This document shows positions 35,493 to 48,000 of a stretch of DNA of 64,000 bases, piece by piece; within the stretch, counting starts at the first letter, position 1, and the number at the start of each line of letters is the position of its first letter. Below the pieces are notes generated by a model. That model was not told the DNA's origin, did no database searches, and saw nothing but the letters and a program-made list of their open reading frames with translations. The DNA is from Caenorhabditis elegans (Eukaryota; Nematoda; Chromadorea; Rhabditida; Rhabditidae): positions 5,142,501 through 5,206,500 of the forward strand of contig NC_003280.10 in NCBI RefSeq assembly GCF_000002985.6, in the 5' to 3' direction. Made by a program: the position numbers and the translations under genes.

Positions 35493-37177
35493 TTCTTGTT
35501 GGATAATCTGAAATTTATCATTCAAAAAATGTGTTAAATCAAAGAAAAATGAATTTGAATCAGAAAAAAAAGAGAAAATTTAAACTAGAAAAGAGTCATG
35601 AATACTGTCGGCAAAATATTGTGAGGATGATCCGACTAGTTTCGATTTTATATCCGTGTCATTTACTCATTGGGGCGGAGGCCGAGGGGTTAACATTTTT
35701 TTCGTTAAAAACACAAATTTATATATGGGATCGACCAGAGTACAAGGACTGCGCACAATCATCGGGATATTCGGATTAAAATAATATGCGATACCAAACA
35801 GACTGAATCACTAAAATACGAATATACTGGAATGTTTTAAGAGATTTTCGAATTATTCATTTTCATTATGACTCTGAAAATGTCTTTCAAATATTTCAAA
35901 TATATATAAATATTACATTGTCGTCTAAAAATGGAACTCTTCGCACTATCTTACGCGCAAAGGTCTCACCACAAAGACAATAAATTACTGTAATCGGTAT
36001 TGAAGATTTTCGGAAAAGTATAATATATGATTTTGTATCGAAAATACGGTATCCGGTCTCGATACGACAATTTTTTTCAAACAAAAAAGGTCTGGGCCTT
36101 TAAAGGGTACTGTACTTTCAAAATTTCGTTGCTGCGAAATTTTCATCGATTTTCAACAATTGTTCGATACAATTGTTTTGAACCTAAAACAAAACAAGGA
36201 ACGTTGACAAATCGTGCGAAGAACTAAGCAAAATCTATGAAAATTCCTTAGAAACGAAATTTCGAAACTACAGTACTGTTTAAAGGCGCACACCTTTTTG
36301 CATTATACAATACATTTGTCGTGTCGAGACCGGCGACCGTATTTTTGGTATATGGTATTCGTATTTGCATGCTACGAGTTTTTAAAAGACAACTTATAAC
36401 CATTCCTGTTCCTAGGTTTTAACTGTTCATAATCAGCTCGTAGTTTTAGTTTAATTTCTCTAGTCGTGTTTAATGAAATACATTGCTCTCTGTAAATTTC
36501 TGGAATGTACAAGAAACCTCAGAAAAAAAATTTAAAATCAATAATTTATATCTATAACATTTGAGGGAGCAGAATGTGATGGAGTGGGTGGTTGTATTTT
36601 CATGAAAATTACATAAAAAGGAAGCATATAGATGGGTAATTATGCAAGGAGGTAGAATCAGTGTCCCAAGAAAGAGTAAAATCAACAAGAAGAAATTAAT
36701 AGAAACCGATCAGTTGGAAAATTGAGTGAAAATGTTTTCTTTTGAAGAAATCATGTTCTACTCTTATAATTAATACCCAGGCTATGATTTACAGAAAAAG
36801 GAGATGTTACAAGAATCATTCAATGTAACATGAGTGATGAAAAGCGGTTAAAACTGGAACAATTCAAAACTGAAGGCCTTTTGAGGGAGAGGCGGAGGAC
36901 ACAATGAAATATCACAGAAAATACACGAAAGGGGGAGAAAATGGTTTACCCTAGGGAGAAAATGGTTTACCTATTGATCGTAGAAAAACAATTTTTTGCG
37001 TGGCAATTATACTGCATTCCCTGATAACATACGATTAACGTTTGAAAAAATTGTATATAAAAATTATCTAATTCACTGGACTTATTAAAGGGGTGCAATA
37101 TCAAGGGAATGGGAGAAAATACTCGTGTTTTTGAAGAGAATGGAGCGAGATAAAAATATGAGGGACATTGGGAGAAA
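35493..37177. other. intergenic between secreted peptide and crh-2
   Basis: Holds a palindromic dispersed repeat at 36041-36347 and otherwise AT-rich DNA, presumably partly crh-2 3' UTR. A hydrophobic minus-strand frame at 36470-36688 is discussed under rejected items. Confidence 0.5.
36041..36347. repeat. palindromic (MITE-like) repeat, about 307 bp
   Basis: The left arm (ATACGG.ATCCGGTCTCGATACGACAA, then GGGCCTTTAAAGGGTACTGTA) is matched in inverse by the right arm (TTGTCGTGTCGAGACCGG, then TACAGTACTGTTTAAAGGCGC). Arms are roughly 110-130 bp at high identity around a loop near 36190. The GGTCTCGACACGACAA wording is a common dispersed C. elegans palindrome. Confidence 0.85.
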
Positions 37178-40100
37178 CTACATTTTTTCTTTACTTTCGT
37201 ATTGATGCAGCTTCTGCTGAAGATCACGATTTGATGCTTCCAATTGGTGAACTTGCTCTGAAAATTATGATAATTAAATTATGGAAATTTTAATCTATAT
37301 TTATTACTTACTTTTAAGGGATTTGTTCTCCTCACTAAAACAGTGCAATCGACCCTCAAGGGCATCAATGTACTCCTTTCTTTTTCGGCGAGATTCTTGT
37401 GCAGAAAGCTGAAATTTGAAATTTTTAAGATTATATATAAATATTAAAAGTTTGAAAAGTTTGAAACTGTTTATTTTATTACGGGAACACTAAATCATGG
37501 GAATGCGTATTGCGCGAGGTATTTGACTCGCAAAATATCTCGTAGTGAAAACTACAGTAACTTTTTAAATGACTACTGTAGCGCTGGTGTCGATTTACGA
37601 AAAACATTTATCAATCAATAAAATTTTTTAACACAGAAAAATAAAATTGAATATCGCTGTCACAATTCGAAAATAAATTCGTTTCGAAAATTGAGTCCGT
37701 AAATTGAAACCAGCGCTACAGTAGCTATTTAAAAAGTTACTGTAGTTTTCACTACGAGATATTTTGCATGTCAAATTGCTTTTTTTTAGAAAATTTTAAA
37801 AACTCACCTTGTTCTTGATTTTACGACGAACAATCTTCAAGGATTCCTCTTCACTTTTTGTCAGTGGGTATTTCTGTGGAATTGAATAGCCTTCTTGAAC
37901 AAGAGTTCGTCGCTCTTCTGCTGACAACACCAAGTCTCCATTGGCAGTTATATTCTGAAATGTTTCATTATTACTTTTAGAAAAATTATAGATCAGAGTT
38001 AAAAATTTAAAAAAAAAGTTTACTTACCTGATCAGTGATTAGATGTTGTCGAATAGCCATTTCGTGCATCTTGTTTCTCGCTTTCAACTGCTGCTGAGCG
38101 GCCGCCAAACCCATGCCACCTGAAGAAAAATAGCATTTTTTTTTATTTAAAAAAATCAATTCTAAATACAAAATGTGTTTTCGATGTTTAATAAATACAG
38201 TAAACAAACGCACAAAATCACACAGTTTTATGTGAACTTTTGTTTTTTCTTGCAGTTTTTTTTTGACTTTCACATTGGTTCGAGCTAGTTTTTTGAAACA
38301 TATATTCACGTACGCAATAAGAGGTCATCAACATCCATCACTTCTTGACTTCCTTCTGATCCGTCCAATCCGTCAGCTGAGGCTGCCGCTAAAAACATTT
38401 CACTATGAATTGTCATGTCGTGTTCTTCTTCGTCAGGACTCGAATCGTGTGAATTCGTTCCAGCACGAGAGTTCAGAAGGGCTGACAGGTCCATTTCGAT
38501 TCCATGATCTTCGAGTTGCTCCTCTTTGATTTCGTCTTTGATAAAGACGTTGGCGGTACAACGTGTCGCCATCGTCTTTTTTGGGTTTTCTACAGTAACA
38601 CGAATTTCAGTATGTTCAGAAAATTAGATAGAAACAAGGTAGGATGCTAAGATGATCAATAAGAAAACGACAGAAGGGACGAAACAGGTGCTGGAGGTGC
38701 CAGACACCACAAATGAACTGGAATGACAGGAGAAAAGGTGTGAAAGAGAGTGAGAAAGAGACTTGGAACTCAAAAAAGTACTCAACTTGTCCGGAACCTA
38801 CATTTACCACTAAAAATGTATGATTCCCACAACGAAATACATCCTGAGCCGTATCAAAACAATTGTTTATTCAACTTTCAGAAATCGTGTTGTATGTGTC
38901 AAAAAGTAGATTTATGGAAAATAGGCACTGGTCGGACTGTAAAGAATCCACTCATTATGATGAATATTATGACATGACGTGGCAAATAAGAATACGAACT
39001 AAAAAGGCCCCAAGGGTAAATGAATCTAGAGGACATAGGGGGCAAGAAGAGGAGAGAAGAGGGTTTTCGATCGACGACCCTCAGCGAAATAGTGTCAAAG
39101 ACAAAGAAACGCAGAGTTCGCAACGTGGCAGATGAGGGGACCGACCGATTAGAGGCATAGAGATGGGCTTTGGACACGCGATAACCTCGGAGACGCCGAC
39201 ACGTCACGCGTAGTGAAAATGGAAAAGGAAGAGACCCCGAGAGCGGTCTCTTTCCGTATATACACACTTTGCCACGTCAGAGAAGTCAGAGTATAGAAAA
39301 GAGACGGACGTGTCTCTCTTTCTTGCTTTCACATTCTCTCGTGGCTATTTCCCTATTTTTTCCCCCGTTGGCCATTAGGGTACCCAATGGCTCTGGGAAA
39401 CGACGCGGCGACGGAAGCCGTTGGTCACGGACTGGTAAAAATAGGAGCTCATGTAGAAACTCGATGACGTTCACAAAAAAATCGGAACGAAAACGGGTAG
39501 AACAATTTTTTGTCACATCTCATCTGCCACGTCATAATATTTACTCTTTCTAGGTATATTGCCAAACTTCTCTACTACCACTATTTTCCTATTGTTTGCA
39601 GAAAAATAAAGTGATGCGATAATAAAGTGGGAATTTGAGTGCCCTCGTGGGGTAAAGAATTTCTAGGTGTGATGAATAGCCACGCCACAAAAAATTATAT
39701 TTTTAATCTAGATTATTAAGAGATCTATGTTCCTTAAATAGAGACAAACATTTATTTGTTGTTTTAAAAACTTATGCTGCAAAATTGAGTCTAAGAAAAA
39801 CGCTAAGAAAACATGAAACTATCAACTACAGTAACCCAAACCTAGTAAAAATCAGAAAGTGGCAAACTCAAAAAATAATTGTTACAGCATCACTACCATC
39901 AACCAATGACGTGGAAAAGTGGTTGAAAAAAAAACAACAATATTGGGTCGATTTAAGGAAAAAACGACGTCGATGAAGTGGTGATGGTGATAGAAGTGGA
40001 CGAGGAGAAGAGGACGAAAGGAGTCTATGACTAGGGTGTAAGCAGCAGAATGCAGTCAGGAGTGTGTCAGAGACGATGCAGATGTAAGAGAAATAGAGAA

Positions 40101-43100
40101 TAGATAAGGGACAGACGCGTGTCACATGACGTGGCAAAACGCAAAGCATCAGCACTTCTTGAGTGAGTTTGTGTGCATGTGTGTGGCGCATGGACATCTC
40201 GTTTTCAGACTGACACACTTTCGAGATTTTCCTGCACACACACACACACATACTGACGTGGCAGACCAGCAAACTTTCTCTCGTATCTTCTTTTATTTTT
40301 GGTGTTTCACACAGTCGTAACTAAACATAGATGCAACTATGCAGAAGCGAAATGACGTGGCGTGCGAAAATGGGAACTGACACACAAGGTGCTCCTTCCG
40401 ATTGGCCATGACTTGAAAAATAAAACGAAGAATGCAATGGCACGTCGTCCAAAGTCTTGCAACAAACAGTATGCTTCTCTCAGAGAGCGCAGACAATGGG
40501 CGAGTGACGTGGCACTTCTTATTTTTATTTTCCTTGCGTATCGGAGAAACGTCCACAATTCTCGTTCCGAGGCAACGGCCAAAAGACACTGCCCGAAGCA
40601 TCAGTCATAAAATAAAACCAATTTTAAATTTGGCATTTAATTTTTTAAATATAAAGCTGGAAGACAATAACCCATTAGAAAAATCTTAAATTCTACAAAA
40701 AGTACATCTAATTCTATGTCATGTCACTTGACACTCATCTGGTAGGAGAACCTCAATGTTTTTGAAAATCTTATGACGTGGAATTTTCAAAAGTATAATT
40801 TAAACGAGTTTTTCACTAGTCACATTGCATGTGTTTCTCTCAAATGAATAAAAACTGCTGGCTAGAGACATAGAAAATTATGACGTGGCAAACAGGATCA
40901 AGTGTGAAGAAGGACAACTTTGACGTCATCTGATCGTGACGGGGATAATGAACTAAATAATTGGCTTATTCTAGAGACGAGGAAGTACATTAATCCAGGT
41001 TCATTGAGGTGGGGAGTTATTTTTGGGAAGTAAAATTTCAGACGATAAAAGTCTATAAAAATCTGTGCGCACGGAAAGCTTCAGCTTCAAAAATCTAGCT
41101 CGAACCTATGTGAAAGCAATTTAAGCTCAAAAATACGAATTTTAATTGAAGTTTTTGGTTTGTTTTTTGAATATTCAAATGACGTACCCATTCCTTCATA
41201 AATTGTTGAATCCTTGAAGAGGAAAGTGTGCGGGACACTTGAAGAAGCGTATTGGTGACTGGGACCGGAGAATATTTGGTTCATGTTCATTTGCAGTGAA
41301 GCCTGAAAAAAGAATTTTCAAAAATGTTTCTAAATTTAATGTATGTATGTATAAATCATTTAAATTGAAAATAAATTAATTTTATAAAATTAAATAAAAT
41401 ATTTTACAAATAGTTTTTTGTCAAATTTAAAATCATTTCGCTGAATCTGATCTCACCTGAGATGGATGCTGAACCACATGATGCTGAAGATGGTGACTAT
41501 GGGAGAAATGAGCCACGGATGGTAAAGGAGACAGTTGTTGTTGGTGGAGCTGATGCGAAGCCATTGAGTGACTTCCGTGCATCATTCCGTAAGACGACGG
41601 GCTGCTGAAATATACTTACGAACGATTAGTCTGTCTCAATGTAGTTAAAGTAAATTATAATTTAAAATTCTGAGAGAAATTCAATTTTTGCAAAAAAAAA
41701 AAACGATTTTTCAACAAAGTTATTGTCAATTCCAAGAAGATAATTGCAAAATTTTTAATTAATTGACATAGAAAATTGATTTTTTAAAAATGAAAAAAAA
41801 AACGTATAGCCACATGCTTCCACGTGGATGGAACACCGAGAAATGGGAGGTCTTCAAATTGGGAGGTCTCTGTGACCCACTGACCTAGTTTCGAGTTTTT
41901 ACGTTTTTTTTTCTTTTTTTCACGCCGATAGTTTTCAACTTTTTGCTCCAAAACTCACTGCGACGATGTGGCCGACGGACTGAACGGAGCATTGAAAAGT
42001 GAATTTCCAAAATGAACATCGAGTCCGAGAGGCTCATCCTTGAATTCGTTCGGCGATGAAAGTGACGACGATGGGCTTCCCGATGATGATCCGTGATAGT
42101 CTGAAATAATATAAATTTAAAAAAGATCAAGTATTGGAGTTTCCAGGATCTGAAATTATAAAACCTCTTGTTCCATTTTCTAATTTTTTTTTCATATTTC
42201 AAAGCAAATTCGCCACCAATATGAAAAACTTCAACCTCGCCGGGTTGGCTCCTGACTCGTTTTGTTATCAGCGAAAAAAACCTTGTCCTTTCTTTAATTT
42301 TAATGGTTTTTCTCTGTCTTGAACCCTCCTAATTAACCGTGTTCTTTTCTTTCATCTCCTATCACTCTTTGTTCCACTTTTGAAACATTTAAGAGTTGTT
42401 TTACATGCTACCTTTCACTTTTTGTGATAACTTCCTAGCTCTTACATCCAACCCTTTTTTTGATAAGTAAACAAATGTTTCGAGAAGAAAGATAGAGAGA
42501 CGAAATATACTGGGTCATAAATTGTGCATTTACGTCAATGACCTGCAACACGAGACACTCTTTTCTTCATGACGATTATTCCTCTTGGTTCCGGGAAACG
42601 CCATACTTAATTGGATGACAAAGTGGCAACTGTACTACAAATTTCAGGCCAATATACGTTCAGCGACAAGGTAGGATTAGGTAATTTCTCCGAGAGACCA
42701 GTACGTCATCAGTGGAACATGTGGCAGAGGAACGACAAAAAGTTGTAGCAACTTTCCAAAGCTTATCAGTAAAACAGTGCGTGATAATTCCAATGTACGG
42801 GAATAGTCAGTAGCAAGTCACAGTTATCGTGTTTTGTGCACATGCTCTTCCAAAGGCAACTTTAAAGCATAATAAAAGTATAATCTTTAAATGATAAAGT
42901 TTCAATTTCATCATAAACACTGAAAAAGAAAGAGAGATGATTCTAAAGTGATTCGGTTAAAATGTGAACTTTTGAGCTGATGGTTCACTGATAACACTCT
43001 CAAGTCATCATTAAAAGAAAAAAATGGAAGTAAAAAAATGATGAAGGAAGTGAGAAAATTAGGAATTAAAAAATATTTTTCAATATTCTAATTATTAGGA

Positions 43101-45059
43101 ATTTAGCTTCATGAATAAGTTGGGAAATCGGAGAGTTAAAATGTGGCCTACCTTCCCCAGTGCTACTGTGACGTGACTGATTGAAAATTCCAGATAGTGG
43201 AGGAAATAGCATAGAAGGATGAGGCTTTTCGTCAGGTGGAGTACATGGTTCCCATTTCATAGGGAAATTTGGGATCGGATGCATCATTTGGTTCATTTCA
43301 CAGTTATTGTTCATTCCCATATGCATCTGTGGCATATCCATTGGCATTGGCATTGACATTGATGAACGAGATGACGAAGAGTTCATAGTTACAGTTGTTG
43401 GTGGTACAATATTTACAGTAATCTGACGGAGATGTGAGGGAAAAGTTAGAGCCAGAATAATGTGATACTGTTCTTATTCTTGTTTCTTTTTCCTCCCCAC
43501 TGACAGGTGGGGCAGGCGGCAGCAACTCAACAAGGGGAGAAAGATACAAAGATGGGGGGACGCTAATTTGATAAACGAGATAGTCAGAGAGTGCATGAGA
43601 AGCCAGTAGAATAGAGCACAAGTTTCGGAGAGAAAAACTGATAACAGTTTAACACAGTGCTCCAAAGGGGAGAGCACACATGTTAGTCACTTTTGCTGAA
43701 TTCTTATTTAATTATTATTCTAAAAAGTGATGCAGATTTAAGTAAACAAACATGGCGATATGAATTTCTCAATTAAAGTCACACCTTTTTGGTCACATAT
43801 AATAATAACATGACACTGAAAAGGTACTTAATCGATATTTGATGGCGGTCGTAAAACGGTCGAAGAGCTGATAACGAGATGTTGTCGTTGACGATTATGG
43901 ATTGAAATCATGAATATACGCTGTTGATGTTTGATATGTGACTATGATTAGCTCACGTATTCAACTGTTGTGGACTGGGAAATAAGGAATATGACATCGG
44001 AAACCTAATAAAAGGCTTCAAATGAGATGATTGTAGCCAGTCGGCTGGTAGGGATTTTATGTTCGACTCTACAAAATGGCCTGTTGCACCATGTTGTTCC
44101 AACATTCTTCATTGAACACTGTTGTCAAAGTCTAGAAAATCACTTGATTTATCTGAAAATAACATTTACTCTAGCTGAATTATCTGATAAGGCACACAAA
44201 CGGCCTGAAAGTTGCCGATTGTCAAAAAAACAAAGCTAGATTTTTTAGCTGAAAATAATGTTATTTCCAGATAAATCAAGTATTTCTTTAGATTTTGACA
44301 CAATTTTTTGATTAAAAATTTTGGTCAAGTTTAGTTTCACACCATTTTGATTTTTGATGCTCATCAACGATATCACACTTTCATCAGATCACTGTCCTTT
44401 CTTCGCTCGTGCTCCTTTTTTTGCTGCCGTTTTTATTTTCCAGTGACCGATGACGTTATCACTTTATATCAACATCAGCACCAAGAGACATTGTTACGAA
44501 AAACGCTAGTACGGAGAGTGAAATTGCTGTTTTATCTCCCAGCCTTTCTTCTTCCCAAGTGCAAAGATTAATGCGTGTTTATTTGCGTTTCAGTTCCATT
44601 TTTAATTTCATTCTCTGTAAGCCTTGATTTTGAAACTTCCGAAAAACGGAACTCAACTTGACTGTAGCTTGATGTTATAAATGTTAAAAGCACTGAGTTA
44701 TCAGTAATATTTCAAAATTAGTTGAAAGATAACTTTTCAAAATGTGACCATAAATCAGAAGAAAATTCTTTGAATGTTTGGAAAGGGCATATTTAAAGAA
44801 AGAGGTCTTACCAGAAGTTTCATCGTTCGGTTCCATTTTAATTCGGAAATTGTCGTCGGAGAATCCATCGATATCATTGTCGAAGAGCTTTAATATCTGA
44901 AATAAAGCTGATTTAAATTAGAAACTTGAATTTAAAAATAAAATAATTTTTGAAAACGTTGATACTCACATCAAGAGTGTCCTTCTCATCATGAACAGAT
45001 GAAATAAATACATCTTTTTCGAGAACTCCACTCGTCGCCCAGTCGTCGTCCATCATCAT
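37178..45059 (-). CDS. crh-2: CREB3/OASIS-family bZIP transcription factor, crh-2-like, multiple start exons
   Basis: Exons 44970-45059, 44812-44896, 41959-42100, 41457-41604, 41188-41302, 38028-38119, 37808-37954, 37312-37408 and 37178-37257 join in phase (331 residues from ATG 45059). Two other in-phase start exons exist: ATG 43386 (exon 43152-43386, [16 protein letters not shown]; 351 residues) and ATG 38572 (exon 38314-38572, [14 protein letters not shown]; 224 residues). The C-terminal part carries [18 protein letters not shown], then [19 protein letters not shown] and a leucine zipper; the [17 protein letters not shown] wording defines the CREB3 group. The N-terminus ([28 protein letters not shown]) is acidic, suiting an activation domain. 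Vertebrate relatives are ER-membrane anchored; I see no transmembrane segment before the stop that follows the zipper. The gene name is from memory and not checked. Confidence 0.85.
37519..37778. repeat. palindromic (MITE-like) repeat in a crh-2 intron
   Basis: The left arm contains GCAAAATATCTCGTAGTGAA, CTACAGTAACTTTTTAAATG and CTGTAGCGCTGGTGTCGATT. The right arm is its inverse (GAAACCAGCGCTACAGTAGC, then AAAAAGTTACTGTAG and ACTACGAGATATTTTGC). Arms about 85 bp, loop about 90 bp. A very common C. elegans dispersed palindrome. Confidence 0.9.
38975..40928. promoter_or_regulatory. cluster of ten TGACGTGG elements upstream of the short crh-2 start
   Basis: Plus-strand TGACGTGG at 38975, 39907, 40127, 40254, 40353, 40505, 40774 and 40881; minus-strand at 39270-39279 and 39525-39534. 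Seven of the ten are extended to GGCA, one to GGCG and two to GGAA. A full CRE, TGACGTCA, lies at 40921-40928, and a weaker TGACGTGT on the minus strand at about 39199. Surrounding sequences differ, so this is not a tandem repeat. TGACGTGG(C/A) is the classical unfolded-protein-response element bound by ATF6/XBP-1 and CREB3-family factors. The cluster lies 0.4-2.4 kb upstream of ATG 38572, inside the intron before exon 38314-38572. Confidence 0.75.
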
Positions 45060-48000
45060 CGCTTCCAGACTGCAAATTTCAATATATTATTGAATCGATA
45101 ATCCTTTTTCGGAAAACGGACGGTGCTCATGATCACAGCTAAGCTAACGGACGGCTCATAACGTTTCGGGTGTGTCAATATCGGTGGTGCGGATTTTTCA
45201 AAGAATTTTGACCGAAAATTGTGACAAAAGGGAATTTAATTTTATAATAAATTATTTACAAGAAAAACACTTTCGAAAATATTAATTTTTCTCAAAAAAT
45301 CTTAAATTTTTTACAATATCAAGCTTGTAAGCAGATTAGGAAAATAAACTTTCTTTTAAAAATTGATTTTAAGAAGCGAAAAGTATACGTGAGGACACAA
45401 AGAATAAATTTGAATGGAAAATTGGGAGCAAATCGGATAAAAACAAAATCCCGATCAAGGAAGCAACATAAAAGTAACAAAAAGTAGGAAAATTGAAAAC
45501 ATTGATTTTTTTCAAATTGAAATATCAAAAAATACAACAGTTTTTCTGAGTTTTTGTGTTTTAAAAGTGAGAAAATGATGATAAAATCTGTGAAGACAGT
45601 TGAAAACGAGCAAAGTTTTAGGAGACTAAAATAATGCAAATGCGCTCCAGCGGACTTGCAATTTTAAATTTGAATTAGGATTACTGTATTCGCTTCAAAA
45701 CTGCCATTTAAATAAAATTCTAGGCTCGTTTTCGATGTTTAAAATTGTTATTTAAATTAAAAAAATTAATTTTAAAATTATCTGAAATTCCCTAAAGTAG
45801 CCGTGCGTATGCTTTTCAATTTGTGACAGTGCTCTTCTCGTTTTGTTTTGCAGCTAAACAAATAGGTCATGGAGGACGGCATCTTTCCGGAGAAGAGAAA
45901 AAGACAGAAAAGGGGACTGTTTGTAATATGAATACAATAGTATTGTACATACGTGTGCTCTATTCATTGATATCGAATAGAAGAAGAAGAAGAAGAACGA
46001 ATGGACGAAATAAGTTCTATATGTTTTCGATATTTGGGTGATTGCACTGCGTATGAAACGTCAACTTTAACGTCGAGTATTTCAAATCTGAATAATAAAT
46101 AGGTTATAGTTAAGTCAGATTTATATAAAGTTCAAGTTAACCGTTTATTCTCTGAAAGAATATCTCGTAATTGAATTTTCGTTCTTATCAGTTAGAACTG
46201 ACTGATTTTTTGAAAAAAAGTGCAAAAAATTTTCAGCAATCAAAAGAAACAAATACTACTGAAAAATTCTAGGACATAAAAAATAAATTAAAATAAAACA
46301 ATTCGATAAGTCCTATATCTTGCCACTTTTTTTGCATCGGTTTTTTCATAATTATTCTTCCTGCCATGTCACTTTCGGTAGTTAAATACTCAAAGGCACA
46401 TAGATTTGTTCGAATGGGTCTCGTTACGAAAAAAATTATGGTATCACTTTTCAGTACTTTCAGTGCTCATTTTTCCCTTAATTTGGAATTTCGTAAGAAA
46501 ATTATTTTAAAAAAATATTTTTCTTGCAAAATAGAAACAACAAAAATTCAAAAAAAGAATCGAGAGTCCAAAATTTAAGCGAAAGCAAAAAATTCTAAAT
46601 ATCATAAAAGTTTTTCGGGGTGAGACCCATCCGAATAAAATTGTTCGTCTTCGAGAAAATTGCAAAATTACGACCATCATCGTACAACATAAATTCAAAG
46701 ACCTACTAAAGAAAATAGTTCCGTAAAAGTATACAAAATCGAATCGAAATCGTCCGTTTGAATGGCTCAACGTTTTCCAGCAACAGCTGCAAAACTAAAA
46801 AAGGCAGCTGCCTGTCTCGTCCTTGTATCCTCACACTTTTTTCTGTGTATTTTGTTTTTTGCAGAAAGCGTAGAAAGATAGTGAAAAGGAGAGGTCGATG
46901 AGAGGAGAACTCGAACAGGAAACGATCCCAGCTGCACAAAGACTGTCAATTTTGCAGCAACTCGAACATAAAGCAATCGAAAGGTCAAACTCGGTGAGCT
47001 TCAGCTTCAAGCTTCAGATTTAATTGCAAAAAAAGTTCGGACTGGCAATGAGAATGTCGGTCATCGCGCCAAATGGAAAAAGTGACTGGGAGTGAGATTA
47101 GATCAAAAATGTCCTTTACCCGAAAATGACCCTCGGGAAACTTTTTGAGGAATATCTATCTCCTCACTAATTAATGAGAACCGACAGTTTTTTTCGGTAT
47201 TTTTTCATCGTTAAAGAAAAGTAATTAGAACTCTGTGGGTTAGAAAAAGGATTTGTTACTGGTAAGGAGAAAGTGGGAACAATTATGGAAATGAAGACGA
47301 ACGGTTTTGTTATTTCCATGTCTGAAGGAAGGTTACTGGTTGAGTGAAGAAGTAGATGTACGTACACAATTTATCGCAAAAAAAGGACGGCCCAACTTTT
47401 GTAAATATAAATGACAGTGACCAAAAAATCTAAATTTTTAGGAACAAAGCTTTTTTTGCTCAAAACGCACTCATAGTGGCTATGCTCGGTGTTCAGTATA
47501 CCGTATTTGCACTGACAAATCTAATTTGAAAGTTGGAAAGTTATTTTTAAAAATTCAGTTTCAAATTCTGATTTTAGTTAAAGTAGGGGAGGGGGGGGAA
47601 TGTACAGAATTGTAGAAAATTCATAGAAGCTAGAACAAAAAGTATTCAAAAGAAGCAATGTTGTCTTTAATTTTCTGGTTAGACTTCCAGAGAAATAATA
47701 CGCAATTGGTGTTTTTTCTAAATAGATTCCAAAATTGAATTTTCTCAAATTTGATCAATAATTTTTGTTTTTTTTTGTTATGAATTGCCTATTGGAAATA
47801 TTCGAAACAATTCAAAAAAACTTTGGTAAAAAGTTGAGTAAGCAGTGTCCAAGAAGAATAGTAAATGGTCTGTGACACTTATAAAATAAACAAAAAAAAA
47901 AGAGAGAGGAGGACATTAATGTTTTGATTATTCTTCCGGGGTTGGAGCAGGAGGGGAAGTCCATTTTCTTCACTAAAATGTTTATAACAAAAGTCTAGGA

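What the first reader, a model, noticed from the sequence alone, without database searches (positions are those of the whole stretch)
38975..40928. Ten TGACGTGG elements packed upstream of the short start of a CREB3-type bZIP gene
Seen: ten exact TGACGTGG octamers (eight plus, two minus) in 1.9 kb, seven extended to TGACGTGGCA, plus a perfect CRE at 40921. At about 36% GC I expect a few hundredths of one octamer in that length, so enrichment is hundreds-fold (hand estimate). Known: TGACGTGG(C/A) is the UPR element bound by ATF6/XBP-1, and CREB3-family factors bind the same core. Inference: the gene autoregulates through its short-isoform promoter, or is a direct ER-stress target. Flanks differ, so the sites are not simple repeats, suggesting independent gain or selection.
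Basis: partly seen in the sequence, partly recalled or inferred. Interest (0 to 1): 0.85.

Follow-up and report, generated by a model that had tools for sequence, protein, structure and literature searches.

The report
Dense bZIP-site cluster in crh-2 intron
A worm gene for a CREB3-like transcription factor carries, just upstream of one of its own start points, an unusually dense cluster of the DNA sites that this kind of factor binds, which suggests that the gene may control itself, though nothing found here shows that it does.

Summary
Observation confirmed. All ten TGACGTGG sites lie where stated and are the only ones in the 64-kb window. Seven extend to TGACGTGGCA; a CRE sits at 40921. The genome holds 3,294 octamers and 1,069 decamers, so 0.064 and 0.021 are expected in 1,954 bp: an excess of 156-fold and 336-fold. 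Among the first 100 listed sites of either word, no 2-kb stretch holds more than two. Partial whole-genome pair scans found other groups: a 17-unit tandem array on X, five sites in 318 bp on V, and smaller ones. The genome rank is therefore high but not settled.

The gene is C. elegans crh-2, minus strand. The sites lie 0.4-2.3 kb upstream of the proximal start and inside a 3.5-kb intron of the two distal forms. A reporter for transcript a, which I take to be the proximal one, is broadly expressed (PMC3685541).

Best reading: a homotypic promoter/enhancer read by CREB3-type bZIPs, CRH-2 autoregulation being the likeliest single mechanism (inferred). The three modelled CRH-2 forms lack a transmembrane segment, so CRH-2 is not itself an ATF6-like ER sensor. 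XBP-1, LET-607 or ATF-6 input stays open. Conservation and occupancy could not be tested.

The parts
38975..38984 (+). bZIP site 1, TGACGTGGCA, 403 bp upstream of the proximal ATG
39270..39279 (-). site 2, TGACGTGGCA
39525..39534 (-). site 3, TGACGTGGCA
39907..39914 (+). site 4, TGACGTGG followed by AA
40127..40136 (+). site 5, TGACGTGGCA
40254..40263 (+). site 6, TGACGTGGCA
40353..40360 (+). site 7, TGACGTGG followed by CG
40505..40514 (+). site 8, TGACGTGGCA
40774..40781 (+). site 9, TGACGTGG followed by AA
40881..40890 (+). site 10, TGACGTGGCA, 2,309 bp upstream of the proximal ATG
40921..40928 (.). palindromic CRE, TGACGTCA
38573..41456 (-). 2,884-bp stretch between the proximal start ATG and the donor of the last distal-only exon; contains the whole cluster (the distal intron as modelled is 37955-41456)
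38314..38572 (-). first coding exon of the proximal isoform ([10 protein letters not shown]...), taken here as transcript a
   Evidence: PMC3685541
38028..38119 (-). second coding exon of the proximal isoform (GMGLAAAQ...)
37808..37954 (-). first common exon (NITANGDL... to the start of the basic region)
37312..37408 (-). common exon with basic region and start of zipper
   Evidence: Pfam bZIP_1
37178..37257 (-). last coding exon, zipper end and stop codon; no transmembrane segment
41457..41604 (-). last exon shared by the two distal isoforms only
41959..42100 (-). exon shared by the two distal isoforms
43152..43386 (-). start exon of one distal isoform (MNSSSSRSS...), from its ATG
44812..44896 (-). 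second exon of the most distal isoform
44970..45059 (-). start exon of the most distal isoform ([10 protein letters not shown]...), from its ATG

Best explanation
The stretch 38.97-40.93 kb is a homotypic promoter/enhancer of the proximal crh-2 transcript. Ten TGACGTGG sites and one CRE are read by CREB3-type bZIP dimers. The likeliest single reader is CRH-2 itself, through the bZIP that its modelled isoforms share. CRH-2 made from any of its three promoters could then feed back on the proximal one and hold it on, or scale it up when the related factors XBP-1 or LET-607 are active. Shown here: the sites, their excess, their place, the shared bZIP and the absence of a transmembrane segment. Inferred: binding, sign of regulation, and autoregulation. 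My split: a real bZIP-bound regulatory cluster 0.8; CRH-2 among the binders that matter 0.5; LET-607, XBP-1 or ATF-6 the main input instead 0.3.
For: Density far above the genome norm. Within the window the sites occur only in the stretch upstream of the proximal start. They are dispersed and not copies of one repeat; the stretch is single-copy apart from a 79-bp match outside the cluster. The decamer is over-represented genome-wide (1,069 vs 45 backwards). Of 40 sites sampled (the first 43 listed, all on chromosome I, less 3 close neighbours), 35 have A or G before the word; the 10 in-register flank matches at E 0.01 or better span only 15-32 bp with the word included. This looks like a used binding site, not a transposon end. 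CRH-2 scores as bZIP_1; its closest PDB chain is 6iak_A, which I recall as a CREB3. CREB3-family factors are reported to recognise CRE and TGACGTGG (PMC3116243, passages); CrebA's motif TGCCACGT is the same word on the other strand (PMC5812652, passages). A reporter for transcript a is broad, while b and c are seam-only and intestine-only (PMC3685541, section 6 part 1). A crh-2 'a' promoter::gfp strain rises on P. aeruginosa PAO1 (PMC7512553, passages). XBP1s activating its own promoter is a precedent (PMC10164557, passages).
Against: I found no binding, expression or mutation data for these sites. No Caenorhabditis sister genome was available, so conservation is untested. Spacing shows no helical phasing. 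TGACGTGG is shared by several bZIPs and contains the hypoxia core ACGTG (recalled), so the binder cannot be told from sequence. The one CRH-2-dependent locus I could check, taken as mir-243, has no TGACGTGG in 3,022 bases (L057). Other multi-site groups exist in the genome. Of ten bZIP_1 loci looked at, two held one TGACGTGG each and eight none, though their upstream regions were mostly not covered. Broad expression of transcript a also fits ordinary constitutive elements.
Confidence: 0.5

Rival explanations
1. The cluster is an input for other bZIP factors of the secretory/UPR network (XBP-1, ATF-6 or LET-607), which switch on crh-2; CRH-2 does not act on itself.
For: TGACGTGG is the UPR element (PMC3116243, passages). 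LET-607 is a worm CREB3-type factor tied to protein folding and UPR (PMC12521169, passages). let-607 RNAi suppressed an atf-4 reporter in a lipid-bilayer-stress screen (PMC7642917, passage). The modelled CRH-2 forms have no membrane anchor, so CRH-2 would need some other input to respond to ER stress.
Against: No report of crh-2 induction by ER stress was seen in the passages read. CRH-2's own basic region is of the CREB3 type, so self-binding cannot be excluded.
Confidence: 0.3
2. Regulatory but not bZIP-specific: the sites act through the hypoxia core (ACGTG) or other motifs in a general promoter region.
For: The octamer contains the hypoxia core (recalled). The stretch is locally G+C-rich (0.50 at 39,100-39,499), as active promoters can be.
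Against: The excess lies in the full TGACGTGGCA word: 1,069 of 3,294 octamers genome-wide continue with CA, and 7 of 10 here. A bare ACGTG reading explains neither the TG start nor the CA end.
Confidence: 0.1
3. Chance or mutational clustering, or relics of local repeats, with no function.
For: The word clusters more than random placement predicts, and at least one other dense group is a tandem array (X 290-292 kb); another on V looks locally repetitive by eye.
Against: Here the ten copies are 99-380 bp apart with largely unrelated flanks. In 2,000 Markov simulations of the same stretch the highest octamer count was 3. None of the tandem repeats found contains a site.
Confidence: 0.1

Closest known systems
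XBP1 promoter autoregulated by XBP1s
   Same: A bZIP factor of the UPR network acting on its own promoter (PMC10164557, passages).
   Different: crh-2 has ten dispersed sites beside an internal alternative promoter; autoregulation is not shown; CRH-2 is CREB3-type by its basic region, and I know of no IRE1-spliced form (recalled).
Drosophila CrebA (single CREB3-like factor)
   Same: Same recognition word (TGCCACGT), and CrebA is itself induced on bacterial infection (PMC5812652, passages), as a crh-2 promoter reporter is (PMC7512553, passages). The Drosophila orthologue is also said to lack a transmembrane domain (PMC8172019, passage).
   Different: No comparable site cluster at CrebA was looked for here.
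Homotypic transcription-factor site clusters in enhancers (recalled class)
   Same: Many copies of one site in about 2 kb of non-coding DNA, no helical phase.
   Different: Located at the gene of a factor of the family that binds the site.
C. elegans let-607 (other CREB3-type gene)
   Same: A CREB3-like exon at contig 1, 6,582,289 (54% identical over 28 residues, E 0.04), which I take to be let-607, has a TGACGTGGCA about 1.2 kb before it (6,581,047).
   Different: Only one decamer is listed there; the sequence around it could not be fetched.

Membership tests
CREB3-family transcription factor (the gene) | bZIP domain with CREB3-type basic region | tested here: met
   Pfam bZIP_1 1.6e-13; best of four PDB matches is 6iak_A, ahead of CREB1 chains; 6iak as a CREB3 is recalled.
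CREB3-family transcription factor (the gene) | Transmembrane segment after the bZIP, cleaved by S1P/S2P | tested here: not met
   The proximal form ends 9 residues after the Pfam bZIP match, and all three modelled forms share that end; best 19-residue hydropathy is 0.53, 0.37 and 0.30. Unmodelled transcripts were not excluded. The Drosophila orthologue is also said to lack it.
UPR element / CREB3 site array | Multiple TGACGTGG(C/A) words | tested here: met
   10 octamers, 7 decamers.
UPR element / CREB3 site array | Bound by XBP-1, ATF-6 or a CREB3 factor in vivo | not testable with these tools
   No peak data held; CRH-2 and LET-607 ChIP-seq data exist (PMC6231769, passage; PMC8172019, passage; PMC13347320, passage).
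Autoregulatory promoter | Factor binds and changes transcription of its own gene | not testable with these tools
   No expression data for transcript a in crh-2 mutants were seen.
Functional cis-regulatory cluster | Conservation in sister species | not testable with these tools
   The window's genome has no relatives in the tool, and I know of no other nematode in the collections offered.

The most novel reading that the evidence does not exclude
A CREB3-type factor that lacks the ER membrane anchor is instead held or scaled by a ten-site autoregulatory array at an internal promoter: feedback at the DNA replaces proteolytic activation, and isoforms from two tissue-restricted distal promoters prime the broad proximal one.
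Probability: 0.2. Interest if true: 0.7.

Novelty: new member of a known kind. Interest (0 to 1): 0.5.

Why it matters
crh-2 is a little-studied worm CREB3-type gene (8 papers in the library hold the name with 'elegans'), needed for pathogen-induced dauer entry (PMC7512553, passages). A site array this dense at its own internal promoter makes a clear, cheap, testable prediction about its control. The genome-wide excess of TGACGTGGCA (about 24-fold over its backward control) also hints at a large CREB3/XBP-1-type regulon in C. elegans.

Tried and rejected
Repeat origin: rejected. A whole-genome DNA search with 38624-41440 returned itself plus one 79-bp, 78% match on contig 4 that falls outside the cluster. 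Repeat searches gave the word with short, weakly alike flanks and three short tandem repeats holding no site.

Transposon origin of the genome-wide decamer: not supported for the 40 sites sampled, all chromosome I. BLASTN among their 210-base flanks gave 14 rows at E 0.01 or better in 13 pairs of sites: 10 in register (15-32 bp, word included) and 4 off register, the longest 47 bp at 79% (L018/L028).

Helical phasing of sites: none (Rayleigh p about 0.6).

Known RNA in 36,000-46,500: no Rfam match at gathering score.

bZIP link elsewhere: of 10 bZIP_1 loci of about 3.1 kb, 2 held one TGACGTGG (L046, L053) and 8 none, one of the eight being crh-2's own bZIP exon, L048. Upstream regions were mostly not covered, so this says little.

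mir-243 as a target through the same word: no TGACGTGG in the 3,022 bases of L057; one TGCCACGT-type word lies about 0.76 kb downstream.

Claim dropped on checking: that crh-2 is the only multi-pair place spread over about 2 kb. A recount shows another on II, 1,369,974-1,371,873, with at least four same-strand sites in 1.9 kb.

Literature: TGACGTGG with elegans, 64 papers, 30 listed; TGACGTGGCA, 96 papers, 30 listed; GCCACGTCA with elegans, 14 papers, 13 listed; I opened none of these on the strength of those lists. C27D6.4, 2 papers. crh-2 with ChIP-seq, motif and XBP-1 terms, 30 papers, 25 listed. The 8 papers with crh-2 and elegans were opened at their crh-2 passages only; no passage shown describes the cluster.
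Full report
What is there. The window is G000 contig 2, 5,142,501-5,206,500, of a 100,286,401-base genome in 7 contigs. Size, gene and published name point to C. elegans chromosome II and the gene crh-2 (C27D6.4); the chromosome names used here are recalled. All ten TGACGTGG octamers are at the stated places, 8 plus and 2 minus, and no other copy lies in 64 kb. Dinucleotide shuffles gave a mean of 0.68 and a maximum of 3 in 100. Seven read TGACGTGGCA and eight TGACGTGGC. A CRE is at 40921, one of four in the window. TGACGTGG is the commonest octamer of 38,600-41,440, strands pooled.

How unusual. Genome-wide there are 3,294 octamers (backward control 1,264) and 1,069 decamers (backward control 45). 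In 1,954 bp one expects 0.064 and 0.021; observed 10 and 7, i.e. 156-fold and 336-fold. Among the first 100 listed octamers (about 2.9 Mb) and the first 100 listed decamers (about 7.5 Mb) of contig 1, no 2-kb stretch holds more than 2.

Rival clusters. Whole-genome scans for same-strand octamer pairs with gaps 31-61, 62-92 and 93-123 gave 16, 9 and 26 hits, 51 in all; about 5 are expected if sites fell at random. The backward word gave 5, about 0.7 expected. Sixteen of the 51 belong to one 119-bp tandem array on X (290-292 kb, 17 copies). Recounting the distinct sites in these rows, the places with three or more in 2 kb are: the X array (17); crh-2 (5 of its 10 sites are caught by these scans, in 762 bp); V 20,532,682-20,532,999 (5 in 318 bp, locally repetitive by eye); II 1,369,974-1,371,873 (4 in 1.9 kb); V 19,174,825-19,174,909 (3 in 85 bp). 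A row on IV at 2,747,272 also holds a third site inside it, so 3 in 73 bp. All these numbers are lower bounds, since opposite-strand pairs and larger gaps were not scanned. So crh-2 is among the densest groups in the genome, but I cannot say that it is the first outside tandem repeats. The flanks of the II, IV and V groups could not be fetched.

Not repeats. Direct-repeat search finds the word with short, weakly alike flanks. None of three tandem repeats contains a site. The stretch is single-copy apart from one 79-bp match outside the cluster. Spacings of 99-380 bp show no 10.5-bp phase, and in 2,000 Markov simulations of the stretch the highest counts were 3 octamers and 1 decamer.

The word itself. 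The decamer is about 24 times commoner than its backward control. I fetched 40 of its sites (the first 43 listed, contig 1, less three close neighbours) with 3 kb on each side. A or G precedes the word in 35 of 40. Flank matches at E 0.01 or better were 10 in register (15-32 bp, word included) and 4 off register. The most octamers in any of these 6-kb pieces is 3. This is the pattern of a widely used binding site. It fits the CREB3 family: reported sites include CRE and TGACGTGG (PMC3116243, passages), and CrebA's motif is TGCCACGT (PMC5812652, passages).

The gene. On the minus strand, joining exons at GT-AG sites gives three open forms: two distal starts at 45,059 and 43,386 that share exons 42,100-41,959 and 41,604-41,457, and a proximal start at 38,572. 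All end in the same bZIP and stop at 37,178. Putting the second proximal exon into a distal form breaks the frame; putting in the first proximal exon was not tested. The model agrees with the published statement that each crh-2 transcript has a unique start exon (PMC3685541, passages and section 6 part 1). That paper reports broad gfp for transcript a, and seam-only and intestine-only gfp for b and c from 'two more distally located promoters'; I therefore take transcript a as the proximal one (inference). The ten sites lie 403-2,309 bp upstream of its ATG and inside the 3,502-bp intron of the distal forms.

The protein. Pfam gives bZIP_1 (1.6e-13). The best PDB match is 6iak_A, ahead of CREB1; I recall it as a CREB3. 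The three forms end 9 residues after the bZIP match, and their best 19-residue hydropathy is 0.53, 0.37 and 0.30. So CRH-2 as modelled is CREB3-type by its DNA-binding part but lacks the defining membrane anchor, as stated for the Drosophila orthologue (PMC8172019, passage).

Mechanism. The best-supported reading is a homotypic promoter/enhancer for transcript a, read by CREB3-type bZIPs, with CRH-2 itself the likeliest single binder. A promoter 'a' gfp strain rises on P. aeruginosa PAO1 (PMC7512553, passages); what that fragment contains was not checked. CRH-2 binding data exist and are enriched at intestinal promoter clusters (PMC6231769, passage); whether crh-2 itself is bound was not seen. 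The main rival is input from XBP-1, ATF-6 or LET-607. Results against: the locus taken as mir-243 has no TGACGTGG in 3,022 bases, with one TGCCACGT about 0.76 kb downstream (L057), and nothing here shows binding. A lead: a TGACGTGGCA lies about 1.2 kb before a CREB3-like exon that I take to be let-607. At the genome rate, one decamer within 2 kb has a chance of about 2 percent.

What could not be done: sister-species alignment, peak overlay, and a full genome ranking.

Noticed in passing
genome-wide (G000): TGACGTGGCA occurs 1,069 times against 45 for the backward word, and about a third of all TGACGTGG continue with CA; it looks like a large CREB3/XBP-1-type regulon.
   Followed up: partly
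G000 contig 6 (X), 290,007-291,918: A 119-bp tandem array with TGACGTGGAG in each listed unit, 17 copies; the densest raw TGACGTGG cluster seen.
   Followed up: no
G000 contig 5 (V), 20,532,682-20,532,999: At least five TGACGTGG in 318 bp; by eye a degenerate local repeat.
   Followed up: no
G000 contig 2 (II), 1,369,974-1,371,873: At least four same-strand TGACGTGG in 1.9 kb; a further possible cluster, not fetched.
   Followed up: no
G000 contig 1, 6,581,047: TGACGTGGCA about 1.2 kb before the CREB3-like exon taken as let-607.
   Followed up: partly
L056 position 1501 (contig 1, 12,095,672): A second exact copy of the 22-base mir-243 word, without the strong hairpin seen at L057 on contig 4 (-17 and -25 against -62 kcal/mol in 120-base folds).
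   Followed up: no
window, about 37,520-37,772: By eye, a long inverted repeat in the intron before the basic-region exon (gtagtgaaaactacagtaac and its complement), a possible MITE; no repeat search was run on it.
   Followed up: no
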